Below the pieces are notes generated by a model. That model saw nothing but the letters and a program-made list of their open reading frames with translations. It had not been told where the DNA came from and searched no databases. A program made the translations under genes and the position numbers. Source: a virus. Taken from it: a DNA stretch of 39,504 nucleotides. The first letter of the stretch is position 1. The number at the start of each line of letters is the position of its first letter. Of this stretch, positions 2-26,800 are shown in pieces. Location: IMG/VR virus record IMGVR_UViG_3300020442_002616, positions 1 to 39,504 of that record, one strand, 5' to 3'.

Positions 2-3000
2 TATGAGGTTGGCTCTGGTAGGTACATTCCTGATGGTTCAAGTAGAGCTATCACGAGAAATGTACTCAGAAGCTCTAAATTAAATGCCGGTCCTTACTAT
101 ATATATGGTAGTGGGGCTGGAAACCACGCTGGTCAAGAGGGGTATTTTCATCCTGTTTGGCTAACTAGATCTGCGGCTATAAGTGGCGTAGGTGTTAATG
201 ACGGTCCTTTCACAGGTGTTCATGAACACACGTTTTCTGGTGTTCCTGGTGTTACCTTTTATATGCCGTCTGAACACATGGGTCATGCTCAAAGCTGGCA
301 CGCTGGCGTTAGTGGTTCAAATTACAACGATCTCTCTAAACCTGTTGACTGGACTGATGCAGGTCTTAAAGAGGTCTTTGTAACTTATCCCGGTAAAACA
401 TCTGTATTCAATGGCTACGGCTTAGTAGATGGAGTTAACGAACCCAAGAAAAGCGGCATTGCTTTCTGGGATAATGAGCAGGTATTAAATTACTCCTCCG
501 ATATTGTTTGGTCAAACTCCGAAAGCATGTTGGGAATCAAGCAACCGCAACCGTCTTTTGCTATTGACGTTGGCGGCTCTAAGGGTTTCTCAACCGTTCG
601 TGCTTCAGGATTTATCGAAGGGGGTTCTGGCATCCTGTTCTCTGGTGTTGCCGGAAGCTATTCTGGTGGAAAGCAGATGGAGCCGTTTTTAAGAAATCAG
701 CTTGGTAGCTCTGCCGATGACTTCATGAAACTCAGCGGTGTTGTTAATCAGTTTATAGATTTTAAAGCGGTTACTCAGCACACTGTTTTCGTTGGCCCAG
801 ATGAAGATTGTGGCTGCACAGATGGTGTTCCTTCATTTAGACTTCTGCAACCTGAAGATCTCCCACTCTCCCAGCTAGGCAATAGTTTTGTAGAGCAGGA
901 TAATAACGGCTTAGGAGCGGATCACGATTATCCTTTCAACGTCGGTCAAGTTGCTCTCTACGCACGGAGTGGTGATATTTCTTATCATAGCGGCATACTC
1001 TTTGATGTCACCAATAGTAGGTTGGGCGTTGGTAGTAATGATATTGGATTAATAGCACCTCAGCACACTCTTGATGTTAGTGGTAATATGGCTGCTAACT
1101 CTGGTTATTTTGATCAACTCATCTTTACAAACGATCTGGTTCGTATCGGCAACTCATCCGGTCGGGGTGGAGATTTACTAGCCACTAAAAATTATCAGAT
1201 TGTAAGCATTGGTTTCTCCGCTGGAAATAACGTCTCGGGTGTCAAGGACTCGTTCTTAGCGGGAGGTCTTGCGGGACGTAGTTTACAAAATTCAAGCGGC
1301 GTTATTGTTATCGGTTCCCAGAACGCAGATCAAGCAACACATCTTAACCAAGTAGTTTCAATTGGCAGTAGCGGAATGGCAACTGCTAGCGGGATGACTG
1401 GAGTTGTTTCACTTGGGTCAAACTCCCTTGCTACCGCACAAACAGTAGAAAATTCAGTTTCTATTGGTGAAGATTCAGCTAGCGGGTTAATCCAATCTAA
1501 TAATGTGGTTAGTATTGGAAGACAGTCTGCTATAGATGCTTCCGGTTTGACAGACGTTGTTAGCATTGGTCAGAACGCTGCTCAAGGTAACAGTGGTATT
1601 TATGACTCAATACTTGTTGGGCAAAGGGCAGCTAGTGGTTCTTATGATCTTCACTCTGTAGCCGGTTTTGGTAATCACGCTATAGGTGAAGCCAGAGAAG
1701 TTAAAAACTCAATCGCTATTGGTAAAGATTCTTTAAAATATGCTTACAATACATCTAACGTAATTGCTATTGGCGATAACACTGCTCGCTCCGGTCATTT
1801 AGTTAAAGACTCTGTAGCTATCGGCTGGAGATCTCTTGACAATGCTAGCGGCCTGTACAAGACGATTGGTGCGGGTTATTACGCTGCTTCTGATACCAGC
1901 GGCAACTTTAATGTATACATCGGTAACCGTGCCGGTGCTGGAGTCTCCGGTAATAAAAACATAGAAATTATAGCCTCCGGTTTATCCGAAAGCTTTTTAA
2001 CTAGTGCAGCCAACAACAAGGTCAACATCGGAAATATTATAGCCGGTGATACATCTACCTCGAAAGTTGGAATTGGTGCCCTTTCAGATGCTAATCCTCC
2101 TGCTACGCTTTTTGTTAGACCTAACAGCGAAAACGATGCAGCGTTTATTATCAAACATCAGGCTTCTGGGTCAAAGACTCCTTACTTTATGTTGCAGTCT
2201 GGCGATGGCACAACCTTCTTCCACATTACAAACAGTGGGGATTTAAAAACGAGCGGATGCGTTGAACCTAGCGGTGGGGTTTGTCTGCCAGATAAAGTTC
2301 CAAATATGACTAACTATCGCCTGTATAATAATGGCGGCACACTTTACTGGAACGGTTCTCAGGTTGATACAGCTGGCGGTACAACTCTCAAGGTTGCTAA
2401 CGACACAACGGATTCCACAGAATCAGACGGAAACATAACCAGTTGGACTGACGGCCAACTTCTTACGGTTAGTGGTGTTAGTGGAGTAGAAGTTCAGCAA
2501 GTCGGTAGATTCCTGAGAGTAGGTGCTAGCGGTCTTTCCGGAGTTTTACAAAGTCAAATCATTGCACAAACATACAACTTTAGCACGGTAGCTAGTGGTT
2601 ATGGAAGTAATAATAATCTAACTAAATTACAGACCGGCGGATCTGTAGTTGCATTATCAGGAATTAGTGGTGTTAATATTGACTTCACAAACCTTGATGA
2701 TGGCACTAATAGTAGTGGTGTCTTTACCATTGGTTACAACCCAAGCGTAACCTTTGACTGGAGAATCAGACACGCAAACAACGGCGTGAACGGTACTTCT
2801 TACACAGTTGTCAACGGCGACACTGTTACCGTGAGTGGTGCCAGTGGAATTGCAGCCCACTTTGACGACTCCAGTAAAATATTGAGACTTGGTGCTAGCG
2901 GCTTGTCTGGAGTTCTTGACGCTACCATACAAAATAGCGGAAATTATATTTGGTCCGATCACACAACTTGGCGTGCCAGCGGAATTGCCGTTAGTGGACT

Positions 3001-4726
3001 TGCTGTTTCAAACTACAACTCTATCCAAGGTATCACCACAAAAAGTGCTACGAGTGGAATCATTCTTAGAGATGATAAATATGTTTTAGACTCTGGCAGT
3101 TACGGTTGGTTGTCGGCCTTAGTTATAAAAGGCTTAAAAGCTGACGGCACAGCCAACAATAATATAGTCATTCACACGGGCAGCGGAACCGATGCTCTCT
3201 TGGGTGAGACCTCTGGAGTTATTGCCATTGGACAGTCTGCTGGAGGCGAGGCGACAGGTCATAACCACTCGGTATTTTTAGGGACGCAAGCTGGTTCTGG
3301 ATCTAAAATCCCAGGAAACATCACTAACTTTGGCGGCGACGTATTTATTGGTTATCAGGCAGGAGCCGATGCAGATAACCGCTCTTTCTCCCCCGTCGGT
3401 CATATCAACAATGTCGCGATTGGTTATCAGGCTGGTTATCAAGTCAATGGCCACGAGATTATTTGCCTAGGATCATACGCTGGAAGGGAAGCATCACACC
3501 CCGCAGACTCTATTTTCCTAGGTCAAAAAGCCGGTTATGAGTCTATATACGATAAAAATGGCACTTATTTAGGACAATCGGCTGGGTACAGAGCTGGACT
3601 TACCAGTACTAATTATAATTCTTCTGCTATCGGTATAGGTCAAAACGCTTTAGCAAACTCTACCGATTTAAATATATGTGCAGGTATTGGGTATAATGCT
3701 CTTGGCTTCGCCAGCGGTATAGAACAGACTGTTTGCCTAGGAATATACGCAGGACGTGATTCCCACGATCATAGGCAGAACATTTTTATCGGTACGCGGG
3801 CGGGACGTTTTTTCAACGGTTTTCCAGACGGTCTTAGTCTTGGAACCGCTGATCATAATGTTAGTATTGGATATGAGTCTTTTTATAATGCGTCTTATTG
3901 CGACAACGGTGTGGCTATAGGTTTTCATGCTGGTCGTCAAGCAAAAAGTGTAGATAATAGTATTTTCATAGGAAACAATGCCGGTCAGAATTTTGGAAGA
4001 AACTATGATGCTGGAGATGGTCACCTTATCATCAGAACAAAATCTTCGGAGAGTGTTGGAGATGTTCATCCTTCGTGGCAAGAGACCACAGTGGGCGGCA
4101 GCCTTATATCAGACTCAGACGAGACATTCAAAGGCGGCTTGATAGATATAGCAACGATCATTCAAGGTAAGTCAGACAATAACAGTGATTTATATCTGAA
4201 GATAGGTAAAGACCTTGGTGACTTCTCAGGAACCTTCAGCGACACACGAAAGAAAGAGATACTTAAAAATAGTACTCTTTCGATCATGTCTCCCAAAAGT
4301 TCAGATGTCGCCTTAAAACTTTGTCAGAATAGAGTATTAAATTCTAGCCAAGGGCAAAACTCTTCGTTACTTTTAGCTGAAACTTATGACGGGTCTTTGC
4401 ATCGAAATAATAATTATGAGGTTATTGACAGAAATGGTCACTTTAAACTTCAGGTTTACGCGAGGGCAGAATGGCTTAGAGTGCAAGCTACCATTGACGT
4501 ACAAGAAAGTAAGGACAACGAAGTAGTTGTTTACATATCTGAATGGCAAATCAGAGATGTGGACAATCGAATTGTAACTCCGGAAGTCGGAAGAATCGTC
4601 ATGGTTGAGCATGTTGTTAGGCAAACTGGTGGTCAATTTGGCTCCACCGGTGACGACTACGTATTCGTAGGTGCAAGAGCAAACAATGGCAACGTTGTTT
4701 GGAAGATGTTGCCTTGGGCGTTATAA
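2..4726 (+). CDS. Giant tail fibre / adhesin with YadA-like head repeats (5' truncated)
   Basis: The frame is open from base 2, so the gene begins upstream of the window; the first internal ATG at 263 is not a convincing start. About 1574 residues are visible, ending TAA. Seen in order: a Gly/Ser-rich N-terminal part; the motif PSFRLLQPEDLP near 830-870, a sequence type common in phage fibre proteins; a first block of about 15 xSIGxxSxA beta-roll units (1195-1960); a middle region with three TVSGxSG...LRLGASGLSG-type beta repeats (2450-2930); a second block of about 14 IGYQAG-type units (3210-4010); then a compact C-terminal domain rich in beta-like strands. The repeats resemble trimeric-autotransporter (YadA/Hep_Hag) heads, which form trimeric left-handed rolls. 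The inferred role is a trimeric receptor-binding or decorating fibre. No S74 self-cleaving chaperone motif was recognised at the C-terminus. About 50 Ser-Gly dipeptides occur. Confidence 0.8.
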   Translation, partial: YEVGSGRYIPDGSSRAITRNVLRSSKLNAGPYYIYGSGAGNHAGQEGYFHPVWLTRSAAISGVGVNDGPFTGVHEHTFSGVPGVTFYMPSEHMGHAQSWHAGVSGSNYNDLSKPVDWTDAGLKEVFVTYPGKTSVFNGYGLVDGVNEPKKSGIAFWDNEQVLNYSSDIVWSNSESMLGIKQPQPSFAIDVGGSKGFSTVRASGFIEGGSGILFSGVAGSYSGGKQMEPFLRNQLGSSADDFMKLSGVVNQFIDFKAVTQHTVFVGPDEDCGCTDGVPSFRLLQPEDLPLSQLGNSFVEQDNNGLGADHDYPFNVGQVALYARSGDISYHSGILFDVTNSRLGVGSNDIGLIAPQHTLDVSGNMAANSGYFDQLIFTNDLVRIGNSSGRGGDLLATKNYQIVSIGFSAGNNVSGVKDSFLAGGLAGRSLQNSSGVIVIGSQNADQATHLNQVVSIGSSGMATASGMTGVVSLGSNSLATAQTVENSVSIGEDSASGLIQSNNVVSIGRQSAIDASGLTDVVSIGQNAAQGNSGIYDSILVGQRAASGSYDLHSVAGFGNHAIGEAREVKNSIAIGKDSLKYAYNTSNVIAIGDNTARSGHLVKDSVAIGWRSLDNASGLYKTIGAGYYAASDTSGNFNVYIGNRAGAGVSGNKNIEIIASGLSESFLTSAANNKVNIGNIIAGDTSTSKVGIGALSDANPPATLFVRPNSENDAAFIIKHQASGSKTPYFMLQSGDGTTFFHITNSGDLKTSGCVEPSGGVCLPDKVPNMTNYRLYNNGGTLYWNGSQVDTAGGTTLKVANDTTDSTESDGNITSWTDGQLLTVSGVSGVEVQQVGRFLRVGASGLSGVLQSQIIAQTYNFSTVASGYGSNNNLTKLQTGGSVVALSGISGVNIDFTNLDDGTNSSGVFTIGYNPSVTFDWRIRHANNGVNGTSYTVVNGDTVTVSGASGIAAHFDDSSKILRLGASGLSGVLDATIQNSGNYIWSDHTTWRASGIAVSGLAVSNYNSIQGITTKSATSGIILRDDKYVLDSGSYGWLSALVIKGLKADGTANNNIVIHTGSGTDALLGETSGVIAIGQSAGGEATGHNHSVFLGTQAGSGSKIPGNITNFGGDVFIGYQAGADADNRSFSPVGHINNVAIGYQAGYQVNGHEIICLGSYAGREASHPADSIFLGQKAGYESIYDKNGTYLGQSAGYRAGLTSTNYNSSAIGIGQNALANSTDLNICAGIGYNALGFASGIEQTVCLGIYAGRDSHDHRQNIFIGTRAGRFFNGFPDGLSLGTADHNVSIGYESFYNASYCDNGVAIGFHAGRQAKSVDNSIFIGNNAGQNFGRNYDAGDGHLIIRTKSSESVGDVHPSWQETTVGGSLISDSDETFKGGLIDIATIIQGKSDNNSDLYLKIGKDLGDFSGTFSDTRKKEILKNSTLSIMSPKSSDVALKLCQNRVLNSSQGQNSSLLLAETYDGSLHRNNNYEVIDRNGHFKLQVYARAEWLRVQATIDVQESKDNEVVVYISEWQIRDVDNRIVTPEVGRIVMVEHVVRQTGGQFGSTGDDYVFVGARANNGNVVWKMLPWAL
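1195..1960 (+). repeat. YadA-head-like beta-roll repeat block 1 (about 15 units)
   Basis: Protein-level degenerate repeat inside the fibre gene. Units such as VVSIGSSGMA, VVSLGSNSLA, NSVSIGEDSA, VVSIGRQSA, NSIAIGKDSL, VIAIGDNTA and SVAIGWRSL recur with a spacing of roughly 13-20 residues. The [VI]x[IL]G core followed by two variable residues and a small residue is the hallmark of the left-handed parallel beta-roll of YadA-type heads. The DNA is not conserved enough between units to count as a tandem nucleotide repeat. Confidence 0.75.
3210..4010 (+). repeat. YadA-head-like beta-roll repeat block 2 (about 14 units)
   Basis: Second block in the same fibre protein, with a distinct consensus [VI]xxIGYQAG: VIAIGQSAGG, VFLGTQAGS, VFIGYQAGA, VAIGYQAGY, SIFLGQKAGY, TYLGQSAGY, IFIGTRAGR, VAIGFHAGR and IFIGNNAGQ. 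Spacing is about 16-27 residues. Aromatic and Arg residues after the IG core distinguish it from block 1, so the two blocks are probably separately acquired or separately amplified roll segments divided by a different beta-rich linker region. Confidence 0.75.
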
Positions 4727-10792: not shown

Positions 10793-13700
10793 ATGTCAAA
10801 ATTTGTACTGACTGCACAGCTACAGTTACAAGCACCTAGAAACGCATCACAGGTATTAAACCAAACTAGACAGCAGTTGTCTGGTGGGGTTACTATACCC
10901 GTGAATGTAAAAAATGCTAAACAAGCTCAACAGCAGATAACTAATGTCGCTAAAGCTACTCAACAGGCGAGTAGTGCCGCTCAAAGTATGGGTAAATCTT
11001 TTGGTTTAGCTACCAAGAGGTTTGCTGCATTTACTGTTGCTAGTAGGGCGATTAGCTTAGTTACTAATGGTTTAGCTAACGCTGTAGATGAAGCCATACA
11101 ATTTCAAAGAGAAATGGTTAAGATTTCCCAAGTTACTGGGCAGTCTATCAAGCAGCTTCGTGGACTTCAAGACACTATAACATCTCTTTCTACCGGTCTT
11201 GGCGTTGTAAGCAAAGATCTTCTTTCTACCACCAGAATTCTTGCTCAGGCCGGTATACAGGCTGGTGACCTTAAGGTCGCCCTAGACGCTCTTGCAAAGA
11301 CCACACTCGCTCCTACGTTTGAAGACATAGAAAAGACAGCTGAAGGTGCGGTTGCTATTCTAAGTCAGTTTGGAGAGGGTGTGGGAGCCTTAGAGAGGCA
11401 ACTTGGTGCTATCAACGCTGTTGCTGGTCAGTTTGCCGTTGAGTCTGGTGACCTTATTGGTGCTGTTCGTAGGTTTGGTGGTGTCTTTAAATCCGCTGGT
11501 GGTGAATTAGAAGAATTACTAGCTTTATTCACTTCTGTTAGAGCGACGACTCGTGAAAGTGCTGAATCAATTAGCACTGGTTTACGTACTATCTTCACTC
11601 GTATTCAACGTCCTAAAACGATTGAGTTCCTTAGACAGTTTGGCGTGGAACTTCTTGACGTAGAAGGCAAGTTTGTTGGACCGTTTGAAGCTGCTAAAAG
11701 GCTTAGTGATGCTCTTGCCGGTTTAGGTGAGGGTGACATTACCTTCATTAGAATAGCTGAAGAGCTTGGTGGTTTCCGTCAGATCGGTAAAGTTATCCCT
11801 CTTTTGCAGCAGTTTGAAGTTGCTGAAAGAGCTAGACAGGCAGCTGTAGAGGGCGGCAACTCTCTAACTAAAGACGCTGAGACCGCACAACAGGCGTTGG
11901 CCGTTCAAATCACTAAGGTTAAAGAAGAGTTCTTTGCATTAGTTCGTGCTATCACAGAAACAGCTTCCTTTCAAGTTTTTGCTAAAACTGCCTTACAGAT
12001 AGCCAGTAATCTTATTGCGATTGCTGATGCTATTAAACCTCTCATACCTCTTCTCACTACGCTTGCAGCTATTAAGTTCGCTAAAGGTTTTGGTGGATTT
12101 CTGTCAGGTGTTGGTGCCAGCTTTAAAGGGAAGAATCAGGGCGGCGTCATACATCAGTTTGCTAGAGGTGGCTTAGTTCCCGGTCAAGGAAACAGAGATA
12201 CTGTACCGGCGATGCTTACACCCGGTGAGTTTGTTATTCGCAAGAGCAGCGTTAATAAAATGGGTGCTTCTACACTTGCCGCCATGAACGAGAATCGGTT
12301 CAAGAATGGTAAACACGTAAAGAAGGGAGATTCAAATCGAACAGCGGCATTTGATCTTACAGATGAGTCACAGGCTGTTTTTACTCCAATAGATAATGCT
12401 TTCGGTGGCTTTTTTACAAAGGTGGGCAAAGAACAATCATTACGAGGTGAAGGGGGACAATTTACTCTAAAACACAAAGGTTTCATAAGGAGACTTGGTG
12501 GAACGGGCGACGAGATGCAGGCAACGCTTGCGGATGCACAATATAGTGTATTTCATCCACAGCTTAAAGACGTAGAAGAAGGTAGCTTCAAAGACGTAAT
12601 AATGGCTAGGCTTGGTGGACCATTAGCCTCAGCCGCTCAAGGCGTTGTAGAACAGATGGCAAACGAAGGATTATTTGATTTTGATCCTGCGATTAAAACC
12701 GACGCCAGTTTATTGAAAGTTGCAAAAGATCAAATAGATTCAGATAATGCATTTAAAAACTCTGCCGCTGGGTATTTGTATGAGTCTATTATAACCGCAT
12801 TTACCGGAGCAAAAGCTAGCGGTGGTAACACTGCTTTTGATTTTAGTAATAAACAAATCTCTAAAAATAGAGATAGGTTTGTATCAATGTTTGGAGCTGA
12901 AGAGCTAATTAGTAAGCTTAGAAAGGGTGATGCAAAATCAGAGCGAAGTAGCAAGCATTTTAAACTTAGTGATTCAGGTAGTTTACCGAGAAAGGTTGTT
13001 TCAGAGATAAACAGAGGCAGCTTGATAGGCACAATGGTCCAAGCTACGACTGGCAATCTGCACAGCGATCTTGCCCATATGAACAAACTTCAATCCAGCC
13101 AAGATACCAAGAAGAAGGCCGCAGGTGGTGGTATTGGTGGAACCGACACTGTTCCCGCCCTTCTAACTCCCGGTGAGTTCGTTATAAACAAAAAAGCGGC
13201 ACAAAGTATTGGTTATGCCAATCTCCACAGTATGAACAAAAGCGGTGTTGCTAAATACGCCAAAGGCGGCACTGTTTCTGTTGGGGGTGTACCAGTACAA
13301 AAATTCTTTACCGGCGGTGCTGCTGATGACATTCAAAGGGCACAAGGATCAATACTTCAGAATGTAGAACAGGCTGGAGAAGTTTTTAAATCCATGATGG
13401 AACAAGTTGCTCCAGAAATAAAAGCGAAAATTCTTGAAACATTCACAGGTATTGAAGAGATCAAAGCTGGATCAGCGGGATCATTGTCTGGTCAACAAGG
13501 CAAAGCCTTTACTGAGGGCACAAGAGGTAGAGCAGCAAAAAATAGATCTGGAGAAACATCTATTGGGTTACAAATCAAAGGTGCAAGGGTTGCAGCTACC
13601 GAAGAAACAGTTGCACACGAAACTGGACACGTCGCTGACTGGGCTTTAGGTGGTAGTAAAGGTTTGGCCAGCAAACAAGAGGGTACATTCCAATTTGATT

Positions 13701-16700
13701 TGATGGAAAAAATCAAACCAGAAATGGAAGCGGCTTTTACCTCTGCTGGTATGAGTGCCGAACGCATACAAAAATATTTAAGTTCTAATGAAGAATTATT
13801 TGCCGAATTCTTTGCCAAGGCTAGCCCAGAAGTCAGAAAAATCTTAACCAGCACAACTGACTCTGCCAAGGGAATGGCTGAATTAAAGGCTCATCTTGAA
13901 GAGGCTGGGCCTACATATGCTGGACTAGAAGCCAGTGACATAGAGGTCGCCGCACCGCGACAACCCACAAACAAAAGTGTTCAAAAAGAATTAAGTATTG
14001 GAGGAAGAGATAAACTTCAACAAGAAATTCAAGCTTCCGCCGCCAGTATTGCCAATCTTAAAAGCGAAGCTGAAAGTCTTGGCGAAGCAAAGAGAAAAGC
14101 CGCCAGCATAGTGAGTAAATTGGATGTCCAAATTCAGAAAACTATGGACTCCGCTATGAGCCATGAGGAGAAGAATCGAAAATCAGCTGAACTAGCCGAG
14201 ATGAGAATAAAGGCCGAACAAGAACATCTACAAACAACCGAAGAACTAGCGGAAGTAGAGAGAAAACTTAAAGAAGCAGAACAGAAAAAAGTTGAGCAAA
14301 TAGAACAAGCGAGGGGCATGAAAGAGAAATCTAGGAGCGGCTTAACAACGGGAACACAAGGCAACATCACACAGGCTATCAAAAGTCAGGGCGAAACTCA
14401 GAAAAGAATCAAAAACGCTGCTGCTGCTGCTGAAGCTGCTCGAAAGGCCGAGATCGCTAAAATGAAAGCGAATCAAAAATCTATACTAAGTTTAGAACAA
14501 TTAGCCGGTGCTACCTTTGGTGTAACAACGGCATTAAGCTTCCTTAGACCCACTATTGATGAAAATAGCTCTGGATTTGAGAAAGGTTTGGCGACTACTG
14601 TTGACGGCCTGATGAGGCTAACTTCTATCGTAGGCGTTGTGGCGGGTGCTCTTCAGGTCTTTGGTATAAAACTAAGCAAGCAAAACTTTTCAGACCTTGG
14701 AAGCTTTTTAACGGGCGGAAAAATTGGTGGAGCAAGAGGAGCTAAGAGAGTTCAACAGCGATTCAGTATCGGTGCTAAAAAAGTCGGAAAGTCAATGCAG
14801 AATATACCCGGTTTAGGTAAATTTGGAAAACACATAACAAAGATTGCCCCTCAGTTAGGAAAATTTGCTGCTGGCTTGGGACCAATAATAGCCGGTTTCG
14901 CCGCTGCCGTTGGTGGTATATATGTATTTACAAATCTACTGGACAGATTCACAGGTGTCCATAAGAAGGCTGAAGAAGCCATAGAAAAAGGCAACAGAGC
15001 ACAAGCTGGACAGCTTGCTGTTAATTCTAGAGTACAAAAAGACTTTAATAATTTAGCTATGGCAGCTGCTGGTGTTGGTGCGATGTTTGGGCCGGTTGGT
15101 GCTGCTGTTGGTTTTGCTGTTGGTGCTATAATTAAGCTGGTTGGACAAACGGAAGCTGGCCAAAAAGCTATGAAGGCGTTCAGAGATAATGTCTTAGTTT
15201 TGTTTGGCGGTGACTCAACTAAAACAATAGAGGCTCAAGCTAACCTACAAGCATCTGTTAACAAATTAAAATTAGAAGAAGCGGACAACACCAAGAAAGC
15301 TGCCGAGGCTATGAAGGCAGTTGAAAAAGGCTCAAGGACTCTAGCTGACGCTTGGGCAAGCGGTGACTTAACCGGCAACCTAGAAAATCAATTAGCAGTC
15401 TTCACAGACACTGTAGCTTTAGAGGCCAGTAAAATGGCCGACCTTGAGAAGATGTACCAAGGTGGCACAGCAAGTGCGATAATGGGAGGTGCGATTGGCT
15501 TTGCTACAGCGGGTCCAGCCGGAGCTGCCGGTGGTGCTGCACTTGGTTCACAGGTGGGTATTGGGGGCATCTTCAAAGAAGCGGGTGCCTTCTTAGGCCT
15601 GACCACTAGTTATGAAGAAGATCGAAAAGCAAGTGAAGAAGCATTCAAAAAGGCCAACAAAGAGTTCACTGCTCAGTTTAAAGAAAATGGCGAAGTATTC
15701 TCTAAAGTTTCAAGATCTATTATTGGTGCCAATCCGGGTGCTAGCTTAGAAGAAGTTAGAGCTACCTTGCTCCGCACAAACCCAGCTATTGCAGCTGCTG
15801 TTGAGGGCATGGGTTCTGATGAAAGAAGAAAGTTCCTAGATCAAACAATTGAAGGAAGTATAAAAGCCTATGAAAAACAAATGAAGTATATTGAGGCACT
15901 CAACTTTGGTATGCAAAAATTTGCTGATAGACTCGCTGGAACTACTGCTTTGATGTCTAGCACGTCTACACTCGGAGAGTCTGGAGGAACAAGCTTTGAT
16001 CGTTCCGCCGAAGTGTTAAACGTAGCTCTTAGCGGTGCAGCCAACACCCTTTCTGACGGCGAGTTAGAGGGTGCTGTTAACGACATGAAGCAATCGCTCA
16101 GAGACGCTGGTGCTAGCTCCGAAGAAATAGAAAAAACTGTAAGCAGATTTAAAGGCTTAAACGAAATAAACAAAAGGCTGGATGAGTCTAGCCCAGCCTT
16201 TAAGAAATTCCAACAAGACCTTCGTGATGCACAAGTCGGCGGAGCCGGAGACCTTAGTCCAGACGCAGTCCTAAAGTCGTTCGCAGATTCAATGACTGAA
16301 GGCCTAGATGAAGATGCAGCAAAACAAGTTAGAGATAGCATCGAATCTCTGAACCTTGATCAAAAAGCAACTGATCAAATTTTAAATAACGATCTAACAC
16401 CTCTTTACAATGCTCTCGGAGAAGCGGGAGAAGAGTTTAGAAAGCAAATCGTAGACGGCATTGTCAAACAAAGGGGTGCCGCAGAGAAAGAATTAATTAA
16501 TAGCATAAAGAAACGCAAGGCATCTGAAGATGAGTTTATTGCTGCACAAAGAAAGGCGATTGATATACAGCTAGAAGCAGCCAAGATCTTTGAAGATTTT
16601 GGTGGTCGAGCACTAACAGGACAAGAAAAATTAAGTGCTAGGGTTGCACAGTTTAATGTCGGTGCTGATGCAGCTGGTATAACTGGTCTGGGTAGCGGAA

Positions 16701-17881
16701 GTGCTAGTGACATCCAGAGAGTAGCCAGTGAGATAAGCGGCAACTTTAATACTTTACAAAGTCAAGCTACGGCGGGTGTAGTAGCTGGAAAAGGTGCTTT
16801 TGATAATGTTGAGGGTGCAGAAAGAGACAACAGAGAAAGATTAAAGAAAGCTAATGATGACCTCCTTAACTTTACAAAACAAAGAATAGGTCTTCTTAAA
16901 GAAGAGCTTGCAATCGTCCAGAAGAAAAACCAAGAAGAAAAGAATGCACTTGAAAAACTACTTTCTGGCGACATAGAAGGATTCTTACAAGGTCAGGCCG
17001 CTGCTGGTGCTGGTGCCGCACTGAGAACCGGAGATGCTGGATTAGCGGGTCTGTTTGGTGCTAGTGCCCTAGGTGCTGGATTCAAAAGCCTTGAGGGTCA
17101 AGGTTTAGGAGATTCAGCTATGGAAAGAGCTGCGGGTTTAAGCCTTGGAGCTGTGGGTGTAACCGATACCAGATCTGCCCAAATTCTTGCTGGAACAACG
17201 GCTGAAGAAGAAGCTATCAAATCTGAAGGTAGAGAGCTTGCTGGCGTGATGGGAGATTTAGCACAACAATCAGCACAGTTTGAAAAAGCAGAGATTAACA
17301 CCCAAGAGGCTATTATAAATGCACAAGAGCTTAGACTTGAAAATCTGACTGCGGCAGCTAATCAAGCACAAGGGTTTGCTAGAGGCGGTCCTGTTTATGC
17401 CAGCCGTGGAATGTTCGTACCTCGCGGTACTGATACGGTTCCAGCCATGTTGACCCCCGGTGAATTTGTTGTAAACAGATCTGCTGTACAAAGAGGCAAC
17501 AACCTCCAATTATTAAGAGCTATGAATAGTGGCGGAGGTGCTAGCGGACCGGGCAACATGAGTGGTGGAGGACAGGTTAGATACTACAACCTAGGAGGTA
17601 TTGTTGAGAGTATTGGTTCAGCGTTCTCAGACGCACTTCCAAACCTTCAAAATGTGTTCTCAAACTTTGCTGCAAGTGTAGATAAATTAGTAAACACCAA
17701 GTTCAACGTAGCCTTAGACACTACAAACGTAAATGTAAACTTTAATGGGGCATCGTTCTTAGAGACCCTTAAAGAAGATATTAAAAATGAGTTACTAGAA
17801 GAAGTCAGTGAACAGATCAAGAAAGCTAAACCAAGCACCTCCGGAGACATGGAAACAAGAAGTACGGTATTAGGAAACTAG
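10793..17881 (+). CDS. Tail tape measure protein with embedded enzymatic-looking modules (2362 aa)
   Basis: ATG has AAGG six bases upstream. The N-terminal 450 residues have the Ala/Gln-rich helical composition and the FQREMVKISQVTG...ILAQAG pattern of TP901-type tape measures. Three DTVPAMLTPGEFV-type motifs occur at residues about 469, 785 and 2214; this motif is typical of phage tape measures. Between the first two is a PD-(D/E)XK-like module (E664, D683, D713-x-K715); after the second is an HETGH zincin-like module (942-946). Residues about 1070-1230 form a charged coiled coil. Hydrophobic, Gly/Ala-rich segments follow at about 1290-1310, 1355-1385, 1420-1455 and 1560-1600. At about 0.15 nm per residue the full chain would correspond to a tail of up to about 350 nm, less if the inserted modules fold out. 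Confidence 0.92.
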   Translation: MSKFVLTAQLQLQAPRNASQVLNQTRQQLSGGVTIPVNVKNAKQAQQQITNVAKATQQASSAAQSMGKSFGLATKRFAAFTVASRAISLVTNGLANAVDEAIQFQREMVKISQVTGQSIKQLRGLQDTITSLSTGLGVVSKDLLSTTRILAQAGIQAGDLKVALDALAKTTLAPTFEDIEKTAEGAVAILSQFGEGVGALERQLGAINAVAGQFAVESGDLIGAVRRFGGVFKSAGGELEELLALFTSVRATTRESAESISTGLRTIFTRIQRPKTIEFLRQFGVELLDVEGKFVGPFEAAKRLSDALAGLGEGDITFIRIAEELGGFRQIGKVIPLLQQFEVAERARQAAVEGGNSLTKDAETAQQALAVQITKVKEEFFALVRAITETASFQVFAKTALQIASNLIAIADAIKPLIPLLTTLAAIKFAKGFGGFLSGVGASFKGKNQGGVIHQFARGGLVPGQGNRDTVPAMLTPGEFVIRKSSVNKMGASTLAAMNENRFKNGKHVKKGDSNRTAAFDLTDESQAVFTPIDNAFGGFFTKVGKEQSLRGEGGQFTLKHKGFIRRLGGTGDEMQATLADAQYSVFHPQLKDVEEGSFKDVIMARLGGPLASAAQGVVEQMANEGLFDFDPAIKTDASLLKVAKDQIDSDNAFKNSAAGYLYESIITAFTGAKASGGNTAFDFSNKQISKNRDRFVSMFGAEELISKLRKGDAKSERSSKHFKLSDSGSLPRKVVSEINRGSLIGTMVQATTGNLHSDLAHMNKLQSSQDTKKKAAGGGIGGTDTVPALLTPGEFVINKKAAQSIGYANLHSMNKSGVAKYAKGGTVSVGGVPVQKFFTGGAADDIQRAQGSILQNVEQAGEVFKSMMEQVAPEIKAKILETFTGIEEIKAGSAGSLSGQQGKAFTEGTRGRAAKNRSGETSIGLQIKGARVAATEETVAHETGHVADWALGGSKGLASKQEGTFQFDLMEKIKPEMEAAFTSAGMSAERIQKYLSSNEELFAEFFAKASPEVRKILTSTTDSAKGMAELKAHLEEAGPTYAGLEASDIEVAAPRQPTNKSVQKELSIGGRDKLQQEIQASAASIANLKSEAESLGEAKRKAASIVSKLDVQIQKTMDSAMSHEEKNRKSAELAEMRIKAEQEHLQTTEELAEVERKLKEAEQKKVEQIEQARGMKEKSRSGLTTGTQGNITQAIKSQGETQKRIKNAAAAAEAARKAEIAKMKANQKSILSLEQLAGATFGVTTALSFLRPTIDENSSGFEKGLATTVDGLMRLTSIVGVVAGALQVFGIKLSKQNFSDLGSFLTGGKIGGARGAKRVQQRFSIGAKKVGKSMQNIPGLGKFGKHITKIAPQLGKFAAGLGPIIAGFAAAVGGIYVFTNLLDRFTGVHKKAEEAIEKGNRAQAGQLAVNSRVQKDFNNLAMAAAGVGAMFGPVGAAVGFAVGAIIKLVGQTEAGQKAMKAFRDNVLVLFGGDSTKTIEAQANLQASVNKLKLEEADNTKKAAEAMKAVEKGSRTLADAWASGDLTGNLENQLAVFTDTVALEASKMADLEKMYQGGTASAIMGGAIGFATAGPAGAAGGAALGSQVGIGGIFKEAGAFLGLTTSYEEDRKASEEAFKKANKEFTAQFKENGEVFSKVSRSIIGANPGASLEEVRATLLRTNPAIAAAVEGMGSDERRKFLDQTIEGSIKAYEKQMKYIEALNFGMQKFADRLAGTTALMSSTSTLGESGGTSFDRSAEVLNVALSGAANTLSDGELEGAVNDMKQSLRDAGASSEEIEKTVSRFKGLNEINKRLDESSPAFKKFQQDLRDAQVGGAGDLSPDAVLKSFADSMTEGLDEDAAKQVRDSIESLNLDQKATDQILNNDLTPLYNALGEAGEEFRKQIVDGIVKQRGAAEKELINSIKKRKASEDEFIAAQRKAIDIQLEAAKIFEDFGGRALTGQEKLSARVAQFNVGADAAGITGLGSGSASDIQRVASEISGNFNTLQSQATAGVVAGKGAFDNVEGAERDNRERLKKANDDLLNFTKQRIGLLKEELAIVQKKNQEEKNALEKLLSGDIEGFLQGQAAAGAGAALRTGDAGLAGLFGASALGAGFKSLEGQGLGDSAMERAAGLSLGAVGVTDTRSAQILAGTTAEEEAIKSEGRELAGVMGDLAQQSAQFEKAEINTQEAIINAQELRLENLTAAANQAQGFARGGPVYASRGMFVPRGTDTVPAMLTPGEFVVNRSAVQRGNNLQLLRAMNSGGGASGPGNMSGGGQVRYYNLGGIVESIGSAFSDALPNLQNVFSNFAASVDKLVNTKFNVALDTTNVNVNFNGASFLETLKEDIKNELLEEVSEQIKKAKPSTSGDMETRSTVLGN
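12197..12240 (+). other. TPGEFV motif 1 of the tape measure
   Basis: DTVPAMLTPGEFVIRK (from residue 469), preceded by GGLVPGQGNR and followed by a Ser-Val-Asn-Lys-Met-Gly segment. The same module recurs at 13145 and 17432. It ends the N-terminal helical part and begins the region carrying inserted domains. Confidence 0.85.
12670..13100 (+). other. PD-(D/E)XK-nuclease-like module inside the tape measure
   Basis: Between the first and second TPGEFV motifs the sequence becomes globular. GYLYE places Glu664 in a helix; FDF (682-684) gives Asp683 at the end of a strand; GDAK gives D713-x-K715. This E...D...DxK order with a small-residue-rich loop matches the core of PD-(D/E)XK nucleases. Spacing from D683 to D713 is long but tolerable. 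This is a motif-level inference without fold confirmation. Confidence 0.35.
13145..13190 (+). other. TPGEFV motif 2 of the tape measure
   Basis: DTVPALLTPGEFVINKK (from residue 785), with the same preceding Gly-rich stretch and the same following AAQSIG...LHSMNKSG helix as motif 1 (ASTLAAMNENR). It lies between the nuclease-like and the peptidase-like modules, suggesting that this element marks domain junctions. Confidence 0.85.
13490..13890 (+). other. Zinc-metallopeptidase-like (HExxH) module inside the tape measure
   Basis: EETVAHETGHVADWALGG contains His942-Glu943-x-x-His946, the zincin motif; Ala and Val positions before it and the ADW helix after it fit an active-site helix. About 55 residues later NEELFAEFFA (999-1008) supplies a candidate third ligand (Glu1001 or Glu1005), as in minimal gluzincin-like domains. 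A LKIKGARVAA-like edge strand precedes the helix. The arrangement is that of a compact metallopeptidase; activity is inferred. Confidence 0.6.
17432..17480 (+). other. TPGEFV motif 3 of the tape measure
   Basis: DTVPAMLTPGEFVVNRS (from residue 2214), preceded by GGPVYASRGMFVPRG and followed by NNLQLLRAMNSGG. It is close to the C-terminus, about 1400 residues from motif 2. Confidence 0.85.
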
Positions 17882-17882
17882 G

Positions 17883-20800
17883 ATGTCACAACAATTTGTT
17901 AAAAGCTTAGAGTGCCACTGCATCGCCGGTCTATCGGGAACCTGCGGTGGAGGCGGATCAATTAGTGCCAAGCTAACTGTTAAACCGGCAGCACTAAAAG
18001 CCTCAATAAAAACCAACTCTAAGATTACTTCTCCCGGTGAAAAGTTATCCGTATCCTTTGCTCGCGTTACCGGTGACGGCCCGCTATACGTTGTTGAGGG
18101 GTGCTCTGGATCTGACTGTAACCTCACCGCTGAGGGCTGGCAAGTTACGATTACTGGAACCGATGATTCCACACCGTTCTCAATTACTACCAAGGCACTG
18201 AACAGGTACGAAAACGGCTCACTCTTAATTCTAGAAAATACAGTTAATCTAACCTCTAACACCGTTACAGTAAGCTCTATTACAGCGAATGGTGTTGCCC
18301 ATAAAACAAAACCAAAGATTATTAGAACAAAAGGTTTTGTACAAACTGTTTCTTCTTTATCTGAAATATCTTCTAGGCTAAACATATCTGAAGCAAAAAT
18401 ATATCCAAAGGAACAAGCTTTAGACAGCCCACTGTCTGTGTTTTCTTCGTTCTTTTCTTTTAGAGCTAATATTGACGTAGAAACTGTGGATGACCCATTA
18501 CTCAGAAGAGTAACACTTGGTCAAGATGCCGTACCTATAGATAGGCTAGAAATATTTAATTTAGCCAGAAGGAACGGCGGTACTTTAAAAATTGAAACTA
18601 CAGATGATTCTGGGACGACTGTAGCCCAGACATTTACTATAGTTAATGTAGAAAATTCCAGCCAGCTTATTATCAAACCTCAAAATGGCGATAGTTACGC
18701 CGATGGTATTTTTGATAACCCTCTTTCTATAGCTACTATTTTTACTACCATTAATACGATTAAGGCTATAGTATCTACGGGACATGTTTCACCAACCCTT
18801 ACAGCAAATTACTCGGTCGGTGAGTCCTTTACATTTACTGGAAACCTCAGAAATACCTACACAGACAAGGTCGCGGGTGACTTTAGCAATTATGGATGTG
18901 TAGAAAAACTATACCCTTCAGCCGACCTACCAATAGCTAGCGGTTTTGGTGGGTTTGTTAGCCCCACAAAGTCAGACCAAGATCTCTATACACAGATAGA
19001 CGAAGGTGTTTATAATGGAGTATTGCAAGACAAGGGTGATGCGTCTCTAGTTAGCGACGATACAAATACATACATTATACCAAACACTGTACATACTGAA
19101 GGGTTTTTCCAGTATAAGTGTCAGCTCTCAAATTTCAATGTCAGACCGGAAGAAACTCGTCTTCACATGCGTGTCTCTGCACCTATTGAGAACTACGAAT
19201 CTAAGATTCCACCGCAGTATACCATATACAATATTAGACTGCAAGACCCTTCCGGCAATCTTATTGTCAAATATAATGACATAACACTACGTGGTGACGC
19301 ACTTTCAAGAGACCATGCAAACTACACAACGTACTCATCCGCACCAGAGATAAATGTAGTCACAGAAAAATATGGATGGCAAAGACAAGGTGTGGTACAC
19401 CTCCAAGAAAAAACTGGATACAGCCTAACCTTTAGTGTTAAATCTGTCGCCTTTGATGACGCATTTACGGAAGGTTTTGACGAAGGTTTTGAAGAGAACT
19501 ATATTATACCCGATATCATAACAGATAAAAAGGGAAATAATTATCTTGCCTTAGATGGTACTCCACTATCTTCTCATGAAAATAGATTTATAAACCCAAC
19601 AGACGGGTTCAAAATTTCTGCCATAGAAATATGCAACAGTGGGTCATATGGACCCGGTATCGAAAACTATTTACCTGTTCGTATCGAAATGCCAATAAAG
19701 GGTAGAAGGCTAGAAAGAAGCATACTCCCAACCTTTATGCCCCTGTATGATTTTGACACCTCTATTTATCCGTCCGTTACCACTACTTGGCAAGACACAA
19801 AAACATCGGTATTTGATAACACTGACAAATGCGGATCTGAAGAACTTGTAAAAATATTAAGAGACAATAACGAGAATAGCTCCATAACGCTTTCTACAGC
19901 CGTTGGTGGCGGCGTTGCTGACTCCGGTAAGTTAACACTTAAGTTTTCCCATACAACCGCTACTCCTAGAGAGATAACTAAAGGAGCCTTCAACATAGCC
20001 TTTGACCAAGGAACTAAAAATACTTGGTGGCAACCCAGCGGTTCCTTCAATGTAGAAAACACACGAACAACCTCGGATTACGATATACCGTTCTTCGCCG
20101 TTGACTCACTAACACTTAAAGTATTAGCAAAGAAAGAGGCGGGTTCTAGAGACTATGCGTTAGATGTTGTTGGCTACAGTGACGATGGATTACTAGAAGT
20201 AACATCTGCCTCTGGAGGGTTTATACAAGACCCATCAGAAATTCACTTAAACGATCTCATTATAACACAAGACGGTCAATATCCAACAACTTCCGGCTTT
20301 AGATCAGACAATGACGACCTTTCTTTAGGCGGCACATCTATATCAGAAAAAGAAAAGTATTTCACAGCCAGCGGGAATGACCATTATAAGCTAACTCAAT
20401 ACCCTTACGTGACAGGAACTGATTTTGAACTGTACGAAATACCACTTCAAATCAACTCTGACACAGTTAAATATGGATTATCAAAAGACTATACTCTAAG
20501 TTCACTGTTTGAGCACTTATACTTAGATATATTCCCCATACCTAGCGGTGCGTCAATTGCACATATATCCTTAGATGTTAGGTACAATCCTCAAAACGGA
20601 ATGAATCTTGCGACTCGCGGTGGTATACCGGTAGATTACATTCAGCCCGGTAGATCAGAAGCCGCACTATTCCCAAGCTACATGCGATCCAATGACGATA
20701 TTATTAATGCTGGATCTGGATACGCACCATTATCAAGAATAGAAAATATACCACACGCATACTCATCGGAAGAGACAACCTTAAAAAGTAATTATTCAAG

Positions 20801-23800
20801 ACGATGGAGAGGCGTCGAGGGAACCGTTCGTGGGCCTTACGACCCCGACTCTTTCTCCTTCAGTTTTGAGAATCCAGTTATGGACTACCCGTTCCTGTCT
20901 GGCTACTTTAAGTTCGATAATCTAGATAATCGCTATGTAAAGTCTGTGGATCTTGGTGATGACTTTGGAACTGTTAGTGGGCTAGCAAAAATAACCCCAG
21001 AGGTTTATCACAACATTGGTTGGAGATTTAGCAGCGGCACATTGTTTGCGGACCACTTACCAAATTACAGTGGAAACTACACCACCACAGACTGGACCTC
21101 CTTGTCAAAAGCTGGTGATACATTCGTCGGCAACCCGATGTACGGTAAAATTGCCGATGCGTTTGACAGGGTAATTAGACTAGAAGGTAATACTCAAAAT
21201 ATTAACTTCGGTAACATTGATACCACCAGTGGATTTTCTATCTTCACTAGGTTTACACCAGATTCAAACATTAGTGGCGTAGGTTACGACCTGTTTGAAA
21301 GTGGGGTAATCTTTTCTAAGTGGGAAGACCCAAATAGTTTAGACTTTGCTCTTGGGTTTAAAGGCGGATTTATCTGCGGGTACGCAAAGAACGATGAAGA
21401 TGGTTCTATCGTAGAAGTTGTTGACACCATACCTTATAGCGGGTATAGCTATCCACTCAATGTCCTGTTAACATATAATGACAATCAAAGTAGTGGTCTT
21501 AAATTATATATCGACAATGAGTCTGTTATACATCCTATAGAAGCTGGAGACTTCTCCCCAAGCTACGAAACTCCGTACATACTAAGAGCAAGTTCAAGTA
21601 AATTCTACAAGAGACCTAATAACGCAGATTTGGTGTTAGGTTATTCAGCCGGTTCTGGCGTGGGTATGAATATGCTTGTCAGCGAATTTGGTATATCTAC
21701 TTGGAGTTCTGGCGTTGACACCCTTTACGGTTCTGGTACTAACATTGTAGAGTCTAATCCAGACGCCACGTACAAACGTGTCACAGCGGACAAGTTCTTT
21801 GAGAATTTACGTGTTACATACTTTGATCCGTCAACCACGTATGGTAACGATAGATATAAACTGTGGGACAGAGTAAATGAGGACACTTATAACGACTGGA
21901 GTATCGGTGCGTTTAAGCATTGTCCATTTAGCTTTGCTTTTGATTCACTACAGAAACGGCCAAATAGAGAGCAGATAGTATTTGATATCAATCATCATGG
22001 TTCTGGATATATGCAGTCAGCAGATCTATCCATGCCTTCTACTGTTAACAGTGGAGCTTCTTACCACACACAAATCGAAAACGACTTCTTAAGATTCCAC
22101 CTTAGTGACGTTCCGGATAATTTCAATGCAGCCGATAAACGTATAAGTAAAAACTTACCGGTTGGCTATAAGTTTAACGAAAGAGCTTTGGTTGTAGAGA
22201 GCGTTATAGAACACAAAACGCAAGACTCTATTGTGTGGTCTGACTGTGATAACAAAGTTGGCCCTAAGCTAATAGTCAGCTTGTACACCAAAAACCAAGA
22301 ACCTTACTTTAGTAAATTCAGTCCTAATCAACCTAACTGGGGTCTTGTCAATAGAAAGTCTCACTACCTAGAACCCTCTAGCTGCCTTATCAGACTAGAC
22401 TCGACGTTTTCTTATGAAGACTTGGATGATGATTCTGAAAAGTGGTCTATCTTCCCAGACGAACCAAGAACAAAAGAGTTTAAAGAAAGGTATTTCTCTA
22501 AAGATGTGGACGACATGTTCGTTCAATACGACTTGGTTTATCCATCAGGCCCATCGTTTAACTCTAGAATAGAGCTTCATTCTTCACACGTTAGAATGGA
22601 ACATGCTACTGTTAAACCTATAAAGGCGTACAATACCGCGAACCTATTTGCTAGTGGTGGATACCCAAGTCAGGCTAGCATGAACCTAGTTGTTGGCGAG
22701 AATCCAGAACCCGTATCTGGAATGTTGCCATTGCTAATGAACGTTCCTATCCCCGTTGACGTGAGCGTGCCAAGCGGCTTTACATTAAATGTAAGTGGTG
22801 CGTACACAACATTTGCTAGTATGAACTTATATACGCCTAACTTCTCTGGCGTTGGGTTCTTAAATCTACATTGTACCTCTGGTATGATACCAAGTTCTGC
22901 CGCCCAATCAATGTTCTTATCGTTGCCAAGTGCAATGGATAGAATATCTTTAGGCGATGACTCTGTAAAAGATAAAGAGCTTACTTATCCGGACGGCTTC
23001 TCGTCTGAGTCAGCCGCAAAGCAAGAAGCGAAAAAACTTGGACTTTCAGGATCTCACCGAAATGAGACCACAGGAAAATACTTCCCAGGTGCTGCCTCTG
23101 ATTGGGATGAAAATTCGGATGGCTATTCAGATGCTTCTAGACTTAGAGGTCCATTTGTACCACTGTTCGTACTTAATTCAGATATCCCTAATTCTGGCTC
23201 ATTACCTTTATATGGATTCTGGAGTTCTGGAGATGCAATCAGGAAGTCCGTAAATCTCTACCTGCACAACGAGCTTGCACCTAGCAGAGAAGGACCAGCT
23301 AGCGGTGACTTGAACATGGTAACCGTTGGTATCAACAAATTCCAAAGCATCATCAGAAGAGCTACCCTTCCTCTGTTCATACATGCACCAAATGTGATCA
23401 ACGGTGCGTTACCATTAACTATTGGTTATTCAGAACAAGATCCTGTTACATCTACGGGTCAAATGAACCTGTTTACTGCTAACTATCCAGTTGGGGCGAA
23501 AGGGGTAGGCTCTGCTTACGGTCTATGGTCTAATGAGAACTTTGGTACTGGTATAGAATTACAAGACAACTATCTTGCTTCTATAAGTGTTTCCAACGAA
23601 ATTAGAGGTGTAGACCTAATCGCTTATGGTAGCTGTGACGGAAATAGTGACAGTAAAGCTATAGACAAAGCCTTAGAGACAGACGACGTTATTTGGAGAG
23701 AAGCGGTATGTAACGACGGCGGTATATTTAGAGCCAAAGACACATACACAAATTCTGGAGCTATCAATTTTGAAGGTGGTTTCGGATACAGTGGTAATTA

Positions 23801-26800
23801 TTATGGTGTAAGAAAGTTCACGCAACTCTTACCAAATATGAATTATGACACCACTGTAACAATTAAAACAGGATCTACAGACCCGATTAAAGTCCCTAGA
23901 ACATTTGAAGAGTGGGAATATGGGATGTGCGGTCCAAACTGGGACGCTGACGGATGCTGCACAGAAGACTGTGATCAAGATATAGTATTCTCCGGTGTCA
24001 AGTTAGTTGCAGATGACTCTAATCTAGTTACTGATCCCGCACTACTTGTAGCGTCTGGTAGAAATATAGATGATAAGTATGGCTATAAAGTTTCTGTCAA
24101 AGGAGACTTGATGGCTGTTTCCGCTCCAAACTTAGATCTTCCAGACTACTCTCCTTATGATAGTGCTAATGTAACAGTACCAAATGCAGGAGCGGTATTC
24201 CTGTATAGACGCGGTGCAGACACTGCGGGCAAGAAAGCTGGCTGGTCTTATGAAAATATCTTAACACTACCGGACGGTTATCGAAAAGATTACGTCGATC
24301 ATGTGGTTAATAACTTAATAAAATTTGACGACTTCTCCATATCAGGAAATAAGTGGCAGATAGGTCAAGAGGGCAGGCGATTCGGTGAGTCTCTAGATAT
24401 GTGCTCTAGTGGTGACAGAGAAACGGTTGTTGTTGGAGCACCTAGAGCTTCTTGGAGCAGAACCTTTACAGATATAACAACTAGCGGCGTACCATGCGGA
24501 ACGCTAATTGTTGCAGACCTGTTCTCCTACAACCCCTCGGATTATGGTAAGATCGCATCCGCTGCCAAAAAGTTTGATATACTTTGGAAGTACTTCTCGG
24601 CACCTTGGTACACTGACTGTAGTATCAAGTGTGTTCCGGAGGAGCAGCAGTTCTACCCAAGGATCGAGATGAAGTCTATAGTACTTCAGGTTATACACTC
24701 ACACAAGAACAGACGGAATGTTCCAAAAGATACAGACCTCGTTGTACACAAATACATAAACAGATTAGACGATTATGACCTTGTAATTAAAGAGGGGTCT
24801 GGAGTACTTAACGGGGTCGGCACCAGACAAGACTTCTTTGCTTCAGGTCAACCGGTTGTGTTCAGCGGCATGGTAAACACTATGAAGGAAGCGTTTACTG
24901 AAGCGTTCCCAGGAAATGATAGTAGCCTACTGTACAGCGGTATCCCAGCAATATTTGGAATGTTTAAAGAGCAGACGGGTTCAACGGCAGGTGCTTTGTC
25001 TTACAGGGACGACCAAGGCGTTGTTCACTCTTTGTATAGTGAGTTTGAAAAGTTCTACAAGCAGCACTCATACGCTAGCGGTGTCTTTGATCAAACAACA
25101 GGATTGAAAGCTAGTGGACACTTGAACACCATAACTGGAAAATCAGAAAACTGGGCTAGCTCGACAGTCTCTATGATATCCGACACATTTGACTCTGGAA
25201 GATTATCCACAACGTTTACTGACACCACCCTTAATAGAAACTTTATAACTAGTGGTGTGGGTCAAGAGTGGGGAGATACGCACTCCTTTGATGTCAGACA
25301 GTTCCAAGTTCCTCCAGAGTCTGGTGGTAGAGTATACATATTTGAAAAAGAAAGAGACAACTTCAACTGTGTGCAAATTATTACGTCTCCGAACGACACC
25401 TCTTCTTTTGGTTCGAGTACGACACTAGACGACTACGATTTCTACTTAGGTTACGGCAAGAAGTTTAACGATAGGTTTGGACACTCCGTAGCAATCAGTA
25501 AGAATAGCGAGGTTATTTCTATTGGATCTCCATTCACTACCTCTCCTTGTAGAGTGTACGAAAGGGATGACGCAGCAACTAAGAAGGTTTATGACAATGT
25601 TAAATCTTGGATTGATAGAAACAACAAAACAGATGCAGCAGCCAACTACGACGCAATACTAGCTGAGTCTGGCATCAGTAAAGCACAAACATCTGCATAC
25701 GATCACTTATCGGCATCTGAACGCTTTGCATTTAGAAATGATAAAGATTTCTGGAACACTAAACCGCCCGCCCTTTACAAACTTGTTTACAAATACGATT
25801 ACTCATCTATATCATATAGAGGTACTAGGCAGTTCCTACCAGGTCACTTTGCACCAACATCTAGATTGGGTTGGAGCACTTCTGTTTCCGACGAAGGTAA
25901 TATGGTTGCGTTTGGAGCACCTACAGACTCATTCAATCTGTATGAAGATGCAAATGTTTATGCTGAAAACCTAGACTACTGGGCTTCGTTCCAGTATGCT
26001 GGTGCTGTAAGAACATTTAAGGCCAGAAAATACTATCCTCATAGCGGAGTGGTTGAGTTTGGTAGATTTGGAAATCTTGACAGAAGTCTTCATCCAGCAG
26101 AAAGAGAGGCTGGGAACTACGACGAAATGCAGCTGTTCTTTAATGAGGGTGCGGATGGAACCTCCAACTACGCCAGAAAACACTTTAGAAGAACAGATTT
26201 CTCAGAAATAGAAATTCCGCAGGATGCCGGACTCGCATTTATTATTACGCCAGAAATTGATGCTGCCAGCGATGAGATTATAGACAATATCAAGAACTGG
26301 CTTGCACTTGGCGACAGAAACCTAGTTCTCGTTGGTAATGACCCAGTATGGGAAGAGAATGGTATCTATAAACCATCAAATGATATTATCAATAAAATAT
26401 TAGAAAAATTAAAATCTAGGATGCGTATACTTCCCGCGAAGAGTAGAGATCTTTCTTTGCCGGACTGCGTTTCAGAAGAACTAAAGAATGATCAGAAGTA
26501 TAATATCACCACGTCGTTCAAGCCAGCTCGCTCTACAGACAGAACAGTAAAAACTGGAAACTACTACGCTAAAGGCGTTGGGGACATTCGCATTGACTTG
26601 TCTCAGGACAAAAAGCAAGATCACATAGAATACATGCATTGCCCAGAGGGTGGGTTCAAAGACGGAGAGCCGGTTATTTTAAATAGCAAGTGTGAGTTTC
26701 CACAAAAACATAGCGGAGACCTACGTGCTGAATGGATCGAAGAGTGTGTCAGAACTCTACCGAATGGTAGCAAAAGAAAAATTCAGTATCCAAACAACTG

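What the first reader, a model, noticed from the sequence alone, without database searches (positions are those of the whole stretch)
13490..13890. Zincin-type metallopeptidase module embedded in the tape measure protein
The tape measure contains VAHETGHVADW, a full HExxH, followed 55 residues later by NEELFAEFFA with candidate third ligands. The flanking composition changes from helical tape-like sequence to globular. Tape measures are extruded ahead of or with the genome, so a peptidase here could trim the tape, breach the envelope, or act on a host target. Lytic transglycosylase and M23 modules are known in tape measures; an HExxH gluzincin-like module is much less familiar to me.
Basis: partly seen in the sequence, partly recalled or inferred. 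Interest (0 to 1): 0.7.

Follow-up and report, generated by a model that had tools for sequence, protein, structure and literature searches.

The report
Injected protease module in phage tape-measure
The protein that sets the length of this phage's tail carries a swappable insert that looks like a working zinc protease, so the phage probably delivers a protein-cutting enzyme into its host together with its DNA.

Summary
ORF 10793-17881 is a tape-measure protein (TMP; PhageMin_Tail E 1.3e-21) with HETGH at aa 942-946 and NEELFAEFF from aa 999. It is not chance: 76 distinct related TMPs (163,104 residues) should hold 0.065 HExxH motifs and hold 10, all in this one module. In 13 distinct copies (<90% identical) H942, E943, H946, D949 and E1001 never vary; E1005 does. 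The AlphaFold2 model of aa 841-1051 (pLDDT 84.4, pTM 0.84) matches M34 gluzincins best: lethal-factor catalytic domain Z 9.2, Pro-Pro endopeptidases Z 7-7.7. Pfam gives only sub-threshold M90/MtfA and SprT scores. The ~200-aa module is cleanly absent from a close relative (L012), was found only inside TMPs, occurs in 2 of 51 complete TMPs sampled by backbone, and is exchanged independently of the backbone (r = 0.21). Best explanation: a host-directed protease carried as optional TMP cargo beside other enzyme-like inserts; self-cleavage of the TMP is the main rival. No activity was tested and the host is unknown. New variant of a known kind (enzymes in phage-injected proteins).

The parts
10793..17881 (+). 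Tape-measure protein, 2362 aa
   Evidence: PF10145 1.3e-21; PHROG tape-measure families; relatives in 411 IMG/VR stretches
11171..11731 (+). PhageMin_Tail core, aa 127-313
12206..12241 (+). Linker motif copy 1 (PAMLTPGEFVIR), aa 472
   Evidence: phrog_35029 matches three stretches of the TMP
12296..13138 (+). First insert, aa 502-782, with a PD-(D/E)XK-like pattern E..FDF..DAK
   Evidence: motif in alignments A6/A7; structure model failed
13154..13189 (+). Linker motif copy 2 (PALLTPGEFVIN), aa 788
13313..13945 (+). Metallopeptidase module, aa 841-1051
   Evidence: alignment A5, AlphaFold2 model, fold search, clean absence of aa 859-1058 in L012
13616..13630 (+). HETGH, aa 942-946: two zinc ligands and the general base
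   Evidence: invariant H, E, H in 13 of 13 copies
13637..13639 (+). D949, third residue after HExxH
   Evidence: invariant in 13 of 13
13775..13777 (+). Y995, candidate active-site tyrosine
   Evidence: 12 of 13; role inferred from M34 enzymes
13793..13795 (+). E1001, likely third zinc ligand
   Evidence: invariant in 13 of 13; E1005 is not
17441..17476 (+). Linker motif copy 3 (PAMLTPGEFVVN), aa 2217

Best explanation
Aa 841-1051 of the tape-measure protein are an intact zinc metallopeptidase module of the gluzincin type, resembling M34 enzymes. Zinc would be held by H942, H946 and E1001, with E943 as general base (assigned by analogy). The module is optional cargo: it travels in the tail as part of the tape, is ejected with the tape at infection, refolds in the host envelope or cytoplasm, and cuts one or more host proteins, for example a defence or regulatory factor. 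Shown here: presence, conservation, predicted fold, modular gain and loss, exchange between backbones. Inferred: zinc binding, proteolysis, delivery, host target.
For: Invariant HExxH, Asp and third-ligand Glu in 13 distinct copies down to about 30% identity. Confident model whose best structural matches are M34 enzymes, Z 9.2 over 142 residues. Purifying selection in two pairs, dN/dS about 0.19 and 0.25. Module cleanly absent in L012 with 53% and 41% identical flanks; 2 of 51 complete TMPs sampled by backbone have it. One copy per carrier record, always in the TMP frame, and none elsewhere in 7 large records whose TMP lacks it. Module and N-terminal identities hardly correlate, r 0.21. Other enzyme-like inserts share the region. 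Enzyme delivery by a TMP has a precedent in P23-45 (PMC10770324).
Against: No activity, zinc content or delivery is shown. Foldseek E-values are modest (best 7.5e-3) and the alignment holds only 8 sequences. The closest pair, L021/L024, has dN about equal to dS. A folded 200-aa domain has to pass the tail tube, so it must travel unfolded or extended. The host is unknown, so no target can be named.
Confidence: 0.5

Rival explanations
1. Self-processing: the module is an active zincin that cuts its own tape-measure protein, during assembly or after injection, to trim the tape or free the other inserts.
For: Iyer and colleagues propose this for zincins in polyvalent phage proteins (PMC5512222). 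In the window the module sits directly after another insert and a linker motif.
Against: Relatives with the same backbone lack the module (L012; 49 of 51), and most TMPs with the first insert have no module, so neither tape nor first insert needs it.
Confidence: 0.27
2. Envelope breaching: the peptidase opens a protein or peptide barrier in the host envelope so that tape and DNA can pass.
For: Lytic enzymes in TMPs are known to help penetration (established knowledge, and the finding's own remark).
Against: The fold matches endopeptidases that cut proteins, not cell-wall amidases; no peptidoglycan-enzyme family matches; presence is sporadic among close relatives.
Confidence: 0.1
3. A non-catalytic role: the zincin fold is kept as a structural spacer or binding domain in the tape.
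For: No activity has been measured; a spacer could be gained and lost, and dN is about equal to dS in one close pair.
Against: All catalytic and ligand residues are invariant in 13 copies although overall identity falls to about 30%.
Confidence: 0.08
4. A chance motif in helical tape sequence.
For: HExxH alone is a short motif.
Against: Expected 0.065, observed 10, all in one homologous domain; confident zincin-like model.
Confidence: 0.01

Closest known systems
Peptidase family M34: lethal-factor catalytic domain and Pro-Pro endopeptidases PPEP-1, -2, -3
   Same: Predicted fold (Z 9.2 and 7-7.7); HExxH with a later Glu in a helix
   Different: 12-17% identity; PF07737 not matched; here it is an insert in a phage tape-measure protein with no sign of a secretion or receptor-binding part of its own
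Peptidase family M90 (MtfA)
   Same: HExxH to Glu region aligns in 3 of 8 members, best E 1.2e-3
   Different: Below Pfam's cut-off (18.9 against 26.2 bits)
Zincin-like metallopeptidases of polyvalent proteins (Iyer et al. 2017, PMC5512222)
   Same: Zincin inside a multidomain phage protein thought to be injected; one clade has Asp three residues after HExxH, as here; the N4 virion RNA polymerase zincin was tied to lethal factor
   Different: That paper does not mention tape-measure proteins; no Pfam polyvalent zincin family matched here
P23-45 tape-measure protein with fused RNA polymerase (PMC10770324)
   Same: An enzyme built into a giant tape-measure protein, which also has a metallopeptidase domain of a type not stated in the passages read
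   Different: The enzyme is a polymerase; no exchange of an M34-like module between backbones is described in the passages read
Tape-measure-related effectors of contractile injection systems (Sle1, PMC13277306)
   Same: Tape-measure-like protein used as a carrier of an effector domain
   Different: Bacterial injection system, not a phage; no peptidase domain named

Membership tests
Gluzincin (clan MA) metallopeptidase | HExxH plus a Glu in a later helix as third ligand, all conserved | tested here: met
   13 of 13 copies; HExxH in helix 97-116 and E1001 in helix 159-169 of the model
Gluzincin (clan MA) metallopeptidase | Zinc binding and proteolytic activity | not testable with these tools
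   needs purified protein
Peptidase family M34 (ATLF) | Fold of the catalytic domain | tested here: met
   Z 9.2, 142 residues, rmsd 3.5; all rows above Z 6.4 are M34; Foldseek E only 7.5e-3
Peptidase family M34 (ATLF) | Match to the Pfam profile PF07737 | tested here: not met
   not listed for any of 8 members at E up to 5
Peptidase family M90 (MtfA) | Pfam PF06167 over its cut-off | tested here: not met
   best 18.9 bits, cut-off 26.2
SprT-like | Pfam PF10263 over its cut-off | tested here: not met
   14.9 bits, cut-off 25.6
Polyvalent protein zincins | Zincin embedded among other effector domains in one phage polypeptide | tested here: met
   SNase over cut-off in L010 TMP; PF03496 in one TMP; PD-(D/E)XK-like motif
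Polyvalent protein zincins | Conserved His at the end of strand 2 (one phage-type clade) | tested here: not met
   no such invariant His; the residue invariant near strand E82-86 of the model is Gln
Polyvalent protein zincins | Delivered into the host cell | not testable with these tools
   needs infection proteomics
Tape-measure protein | PhageMin_Tail domain, long helical protein in a tail gene block | tested here: met

The most novel reading that the evidence does not exclude
In this uncultured phage group the tape-measure protein is a general delivery scaffold: repeated DTVPALLTPGEFVI linkers frame a cargo region in which different enzymes (nuclease-like, SNase, nucleotidyltransferase-like, ADP-ribosyltransferase-like, HAD-like and this M34-like protease) are gained, lost and swapped, and all are injected to act on the host.
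Probability: 0.4. Interest if true: 0.75.

Novelty: new variant of a known kind. Interest (0 to 1): 0.57.

Why it matters
Tape-measure proteins enter the cell envelope with the DNA, so enzymes built into them are among the first phage proteins the host meets. An exchangeable M34-like protease there would show that phages can deliver proteolytic effectors through the tape, would extend the polyvalent-protein idea to tail proteins, and gives a concrete, testable set of candidate injected enzymes in uncultured phages.

Tried and rejected
Chance motif: rejected. M23, lytic transglycosylase or other known TMP peptidoglycan enzymes: no Pfam match. INPHARED phage genomes: no relative of the module, nor of two other window genes; the TMP matches there only over short stretches around the linker motif. 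PDB sequence searches: nothing meaningful. NCBIfam: nothing. GTDB genome contigs: one hit, an 8.2-kb contig in a Chitinophagia MAG that is itself a TMP fragment. AlphaFold2 model of the first insert: pLDDT 50.9, too poor to search. psbA and tail-sheath families were not found in the related records although both rang in control genomes; T4 gp23 rang nowhere, so that test says nothing. Literature, open-access only: 'tape measure' with 'HExxH' gave two contractile-injection papers that were not read; with 'lethal factor' and 'metalloprotease' nothing; 'tape measure proteins' with 'zincin' nothing; 33 papers hold 'tape measure', 'metalloprotease' and 'phage', none opened.

Full report
The feature. 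ORF 10793-17881 (+) encodes 2362 aa. Pfam PF10145 (PhageMin_Tail) matches aa 127-313 with E 1.3e-21 and PHROG tape-measure families match as well. HETGH lies at aa 942-946 and NEELFAEFF starts at aa 999. No other main ORF of the window has an HExxH.

Is it more than chance? Histidine is only 0.26% of residues in these TMPs. In 76 distinct TMPs (163,104 residues) 0.065 HExxH motifs are expected and 10 are found, each in the same homologous module. Some of these TMPs were fetched with the module as query, so 10 is not a frequency. In the set fetched by backbone every HExxH is again in the module.

Homologues and conservation. Scans of IMG/VR with the module and with the TMP N-terminal region (411 relatives, 80 fetched), plus one GTDB scan, give 13 distinct modules under 90% identity. 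H942, E943, H946, D949 and E1001 are the same in all 13, and Y995 in 12. dN/dS is about 0.19 for L032/L097 and 0.25 for L032/L011; for the close pair L021/L024 dN and dS are about equal, on few changes.

Fold. AlphaFold2 on the 8-sequence alignment A5 gives pLDDT 84.4 and pTM 0.84. Foldseek's best matches in the PDB are structures of lethal factor (E 7.5e-3, prob 0.93) and related proteins, then Pro-Pro endopeptidases (E about 0.1). VIA-align 2 places the model on the lethal-factor catalytic domain (Z 9.2 over 142 residues, rmsd 3.5, 16% identity) and on PPEP-2, PPEP-3 and PPEP-1 (7.7, 7.4, 7.2); M36 enzymes follow at 6.4. The E-values are modest. What convinces is that all the top VIA rows are of one peptidase family and that the residues expected of it are invariant. 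Pfam gives only sub-threshold scores: M90/MtfA in 3 of 8 members, best 1.2e-3, and SprT 0.025; PF07737 is not listed. I call the module M34-like, not an M34 member. A shared fold does not show function.

Modularity. Against L012 the window TMP aligns over aa 1-858 (53% identity) and aa 1059-2362 (41%), and the roughly 200 aa between, the module, have no counterpart. Among 51 complete, distinct TMPs fetched by backbone, 2 carry the module. Each of 9 carrier records searched whole has exactly one copy, in the long open frame of its TMP, and 7 of 7 large records whose TMP showed no module have none anywhere (the TMP of one of them, L029, is incomplete in the stretch held). Identities of the module and of the N-terminal region hardly correlate over 36 pairs (r 0.21): window and L021 share 75% of the N-terminal region and 33% of the module, window and L007 39% and 59%. 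The module is therefore gained, lost and exchanged apart from the tape.

Company. The stretch after the PhageMin_Tail core holds other inserts framed by a repeated motif, DTVPALLTPGEFVI, at aa 472, 788 and 2217 in the window. The first insert, seen in most of the TMPs aligned, shows a PD-(D/E)XK-like pattern G..FE..FDF..DAK, but its model failed, so that is motif evidence only. L010 has an SNase domain over the Pfam cut-off and, by eye, HAD-like and ADP-ribosyltransferase-like stretches; one member of alignment A6 matches PF03496 at 9.4e-5. L009 has a nucleotidyltransferase-like stretch by eye.

How it most likely works. Inference: zinc bound by H942, H946 and E1001, E943 as base; carried within the tape, ejected at infection, cutting a host protein. 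Optional presence and exchange argue for a host-directed role rather than a need of the tape. Self-cleavage, proposed for zincins in polyvalent proteins (PMC5512222), is the main rival; it is weakened because relatives with the same backbone and first insert lack the module. Envelope breaching and a non-catalytic role are less likely. Nothing here shows activity, delivery or a target, and the host is unknown. No tail-sheath family was found in 12 related records, which fits a non-contractile tail without proving it.

Relation to known systems. Enzymes in TMPs are known: P23-45 has an RNA polymerase in its TMP and a metallopeptidase domain of a type not stated in the passages read (PMC10770324). 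Zincins in injected polyvalent proteins are known, and the N4 virion RNA polymerase zincin was tied to lethal factor by profile search (PMC5512222); that paper does not mention tape measures. A 2026 paper reports TMP-related effectors of contractile injection systems (PMC13277306). I found no report of an M34-like module exchanged between TMPs, in a search of open-access papers only.

Noticed in passing
window 12296-13138: First insert of the TMP has a PD-(D/E)XK-nuclease-like pattern shared by most related TMPs; the structure model was too poor to test it.
   Followed up: partly
L010:4407-8020: A 4171-aa TMP with an SNase domain over the Pfam cut-off and, by eye, HAD-like and ADP-ribosyltransferase-like stretches before the metallopeptidase.
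   Followed up: partly
L009:4002-7997: By eye, a nucleotidyltransferase-like stretch (PLTRGHAE ... ISGTATR) and a second nuclease-like stretch in the TMP; Pfam gave no match.
   Followed up: partly
window 12206-12241, 13154-13189, 17441-17476: Repeated linker motif DTVPALLTPGEFVI that frames the inserts; the same motif is in TMPs of Gordonia phages and in cyanophage S-SM2. Its role is unknown.
   Followed up: partly
window 17883-30980: A 4365-aa ORF follows the TMP directly; its function was not studied.
   Followed up: no
window 263-4726: 1487-aa protein with many repeated short Gly/Ser-rich motifs, reminiscent of fibre or adhesin repeats; no Pfam match.
   Followed up: no
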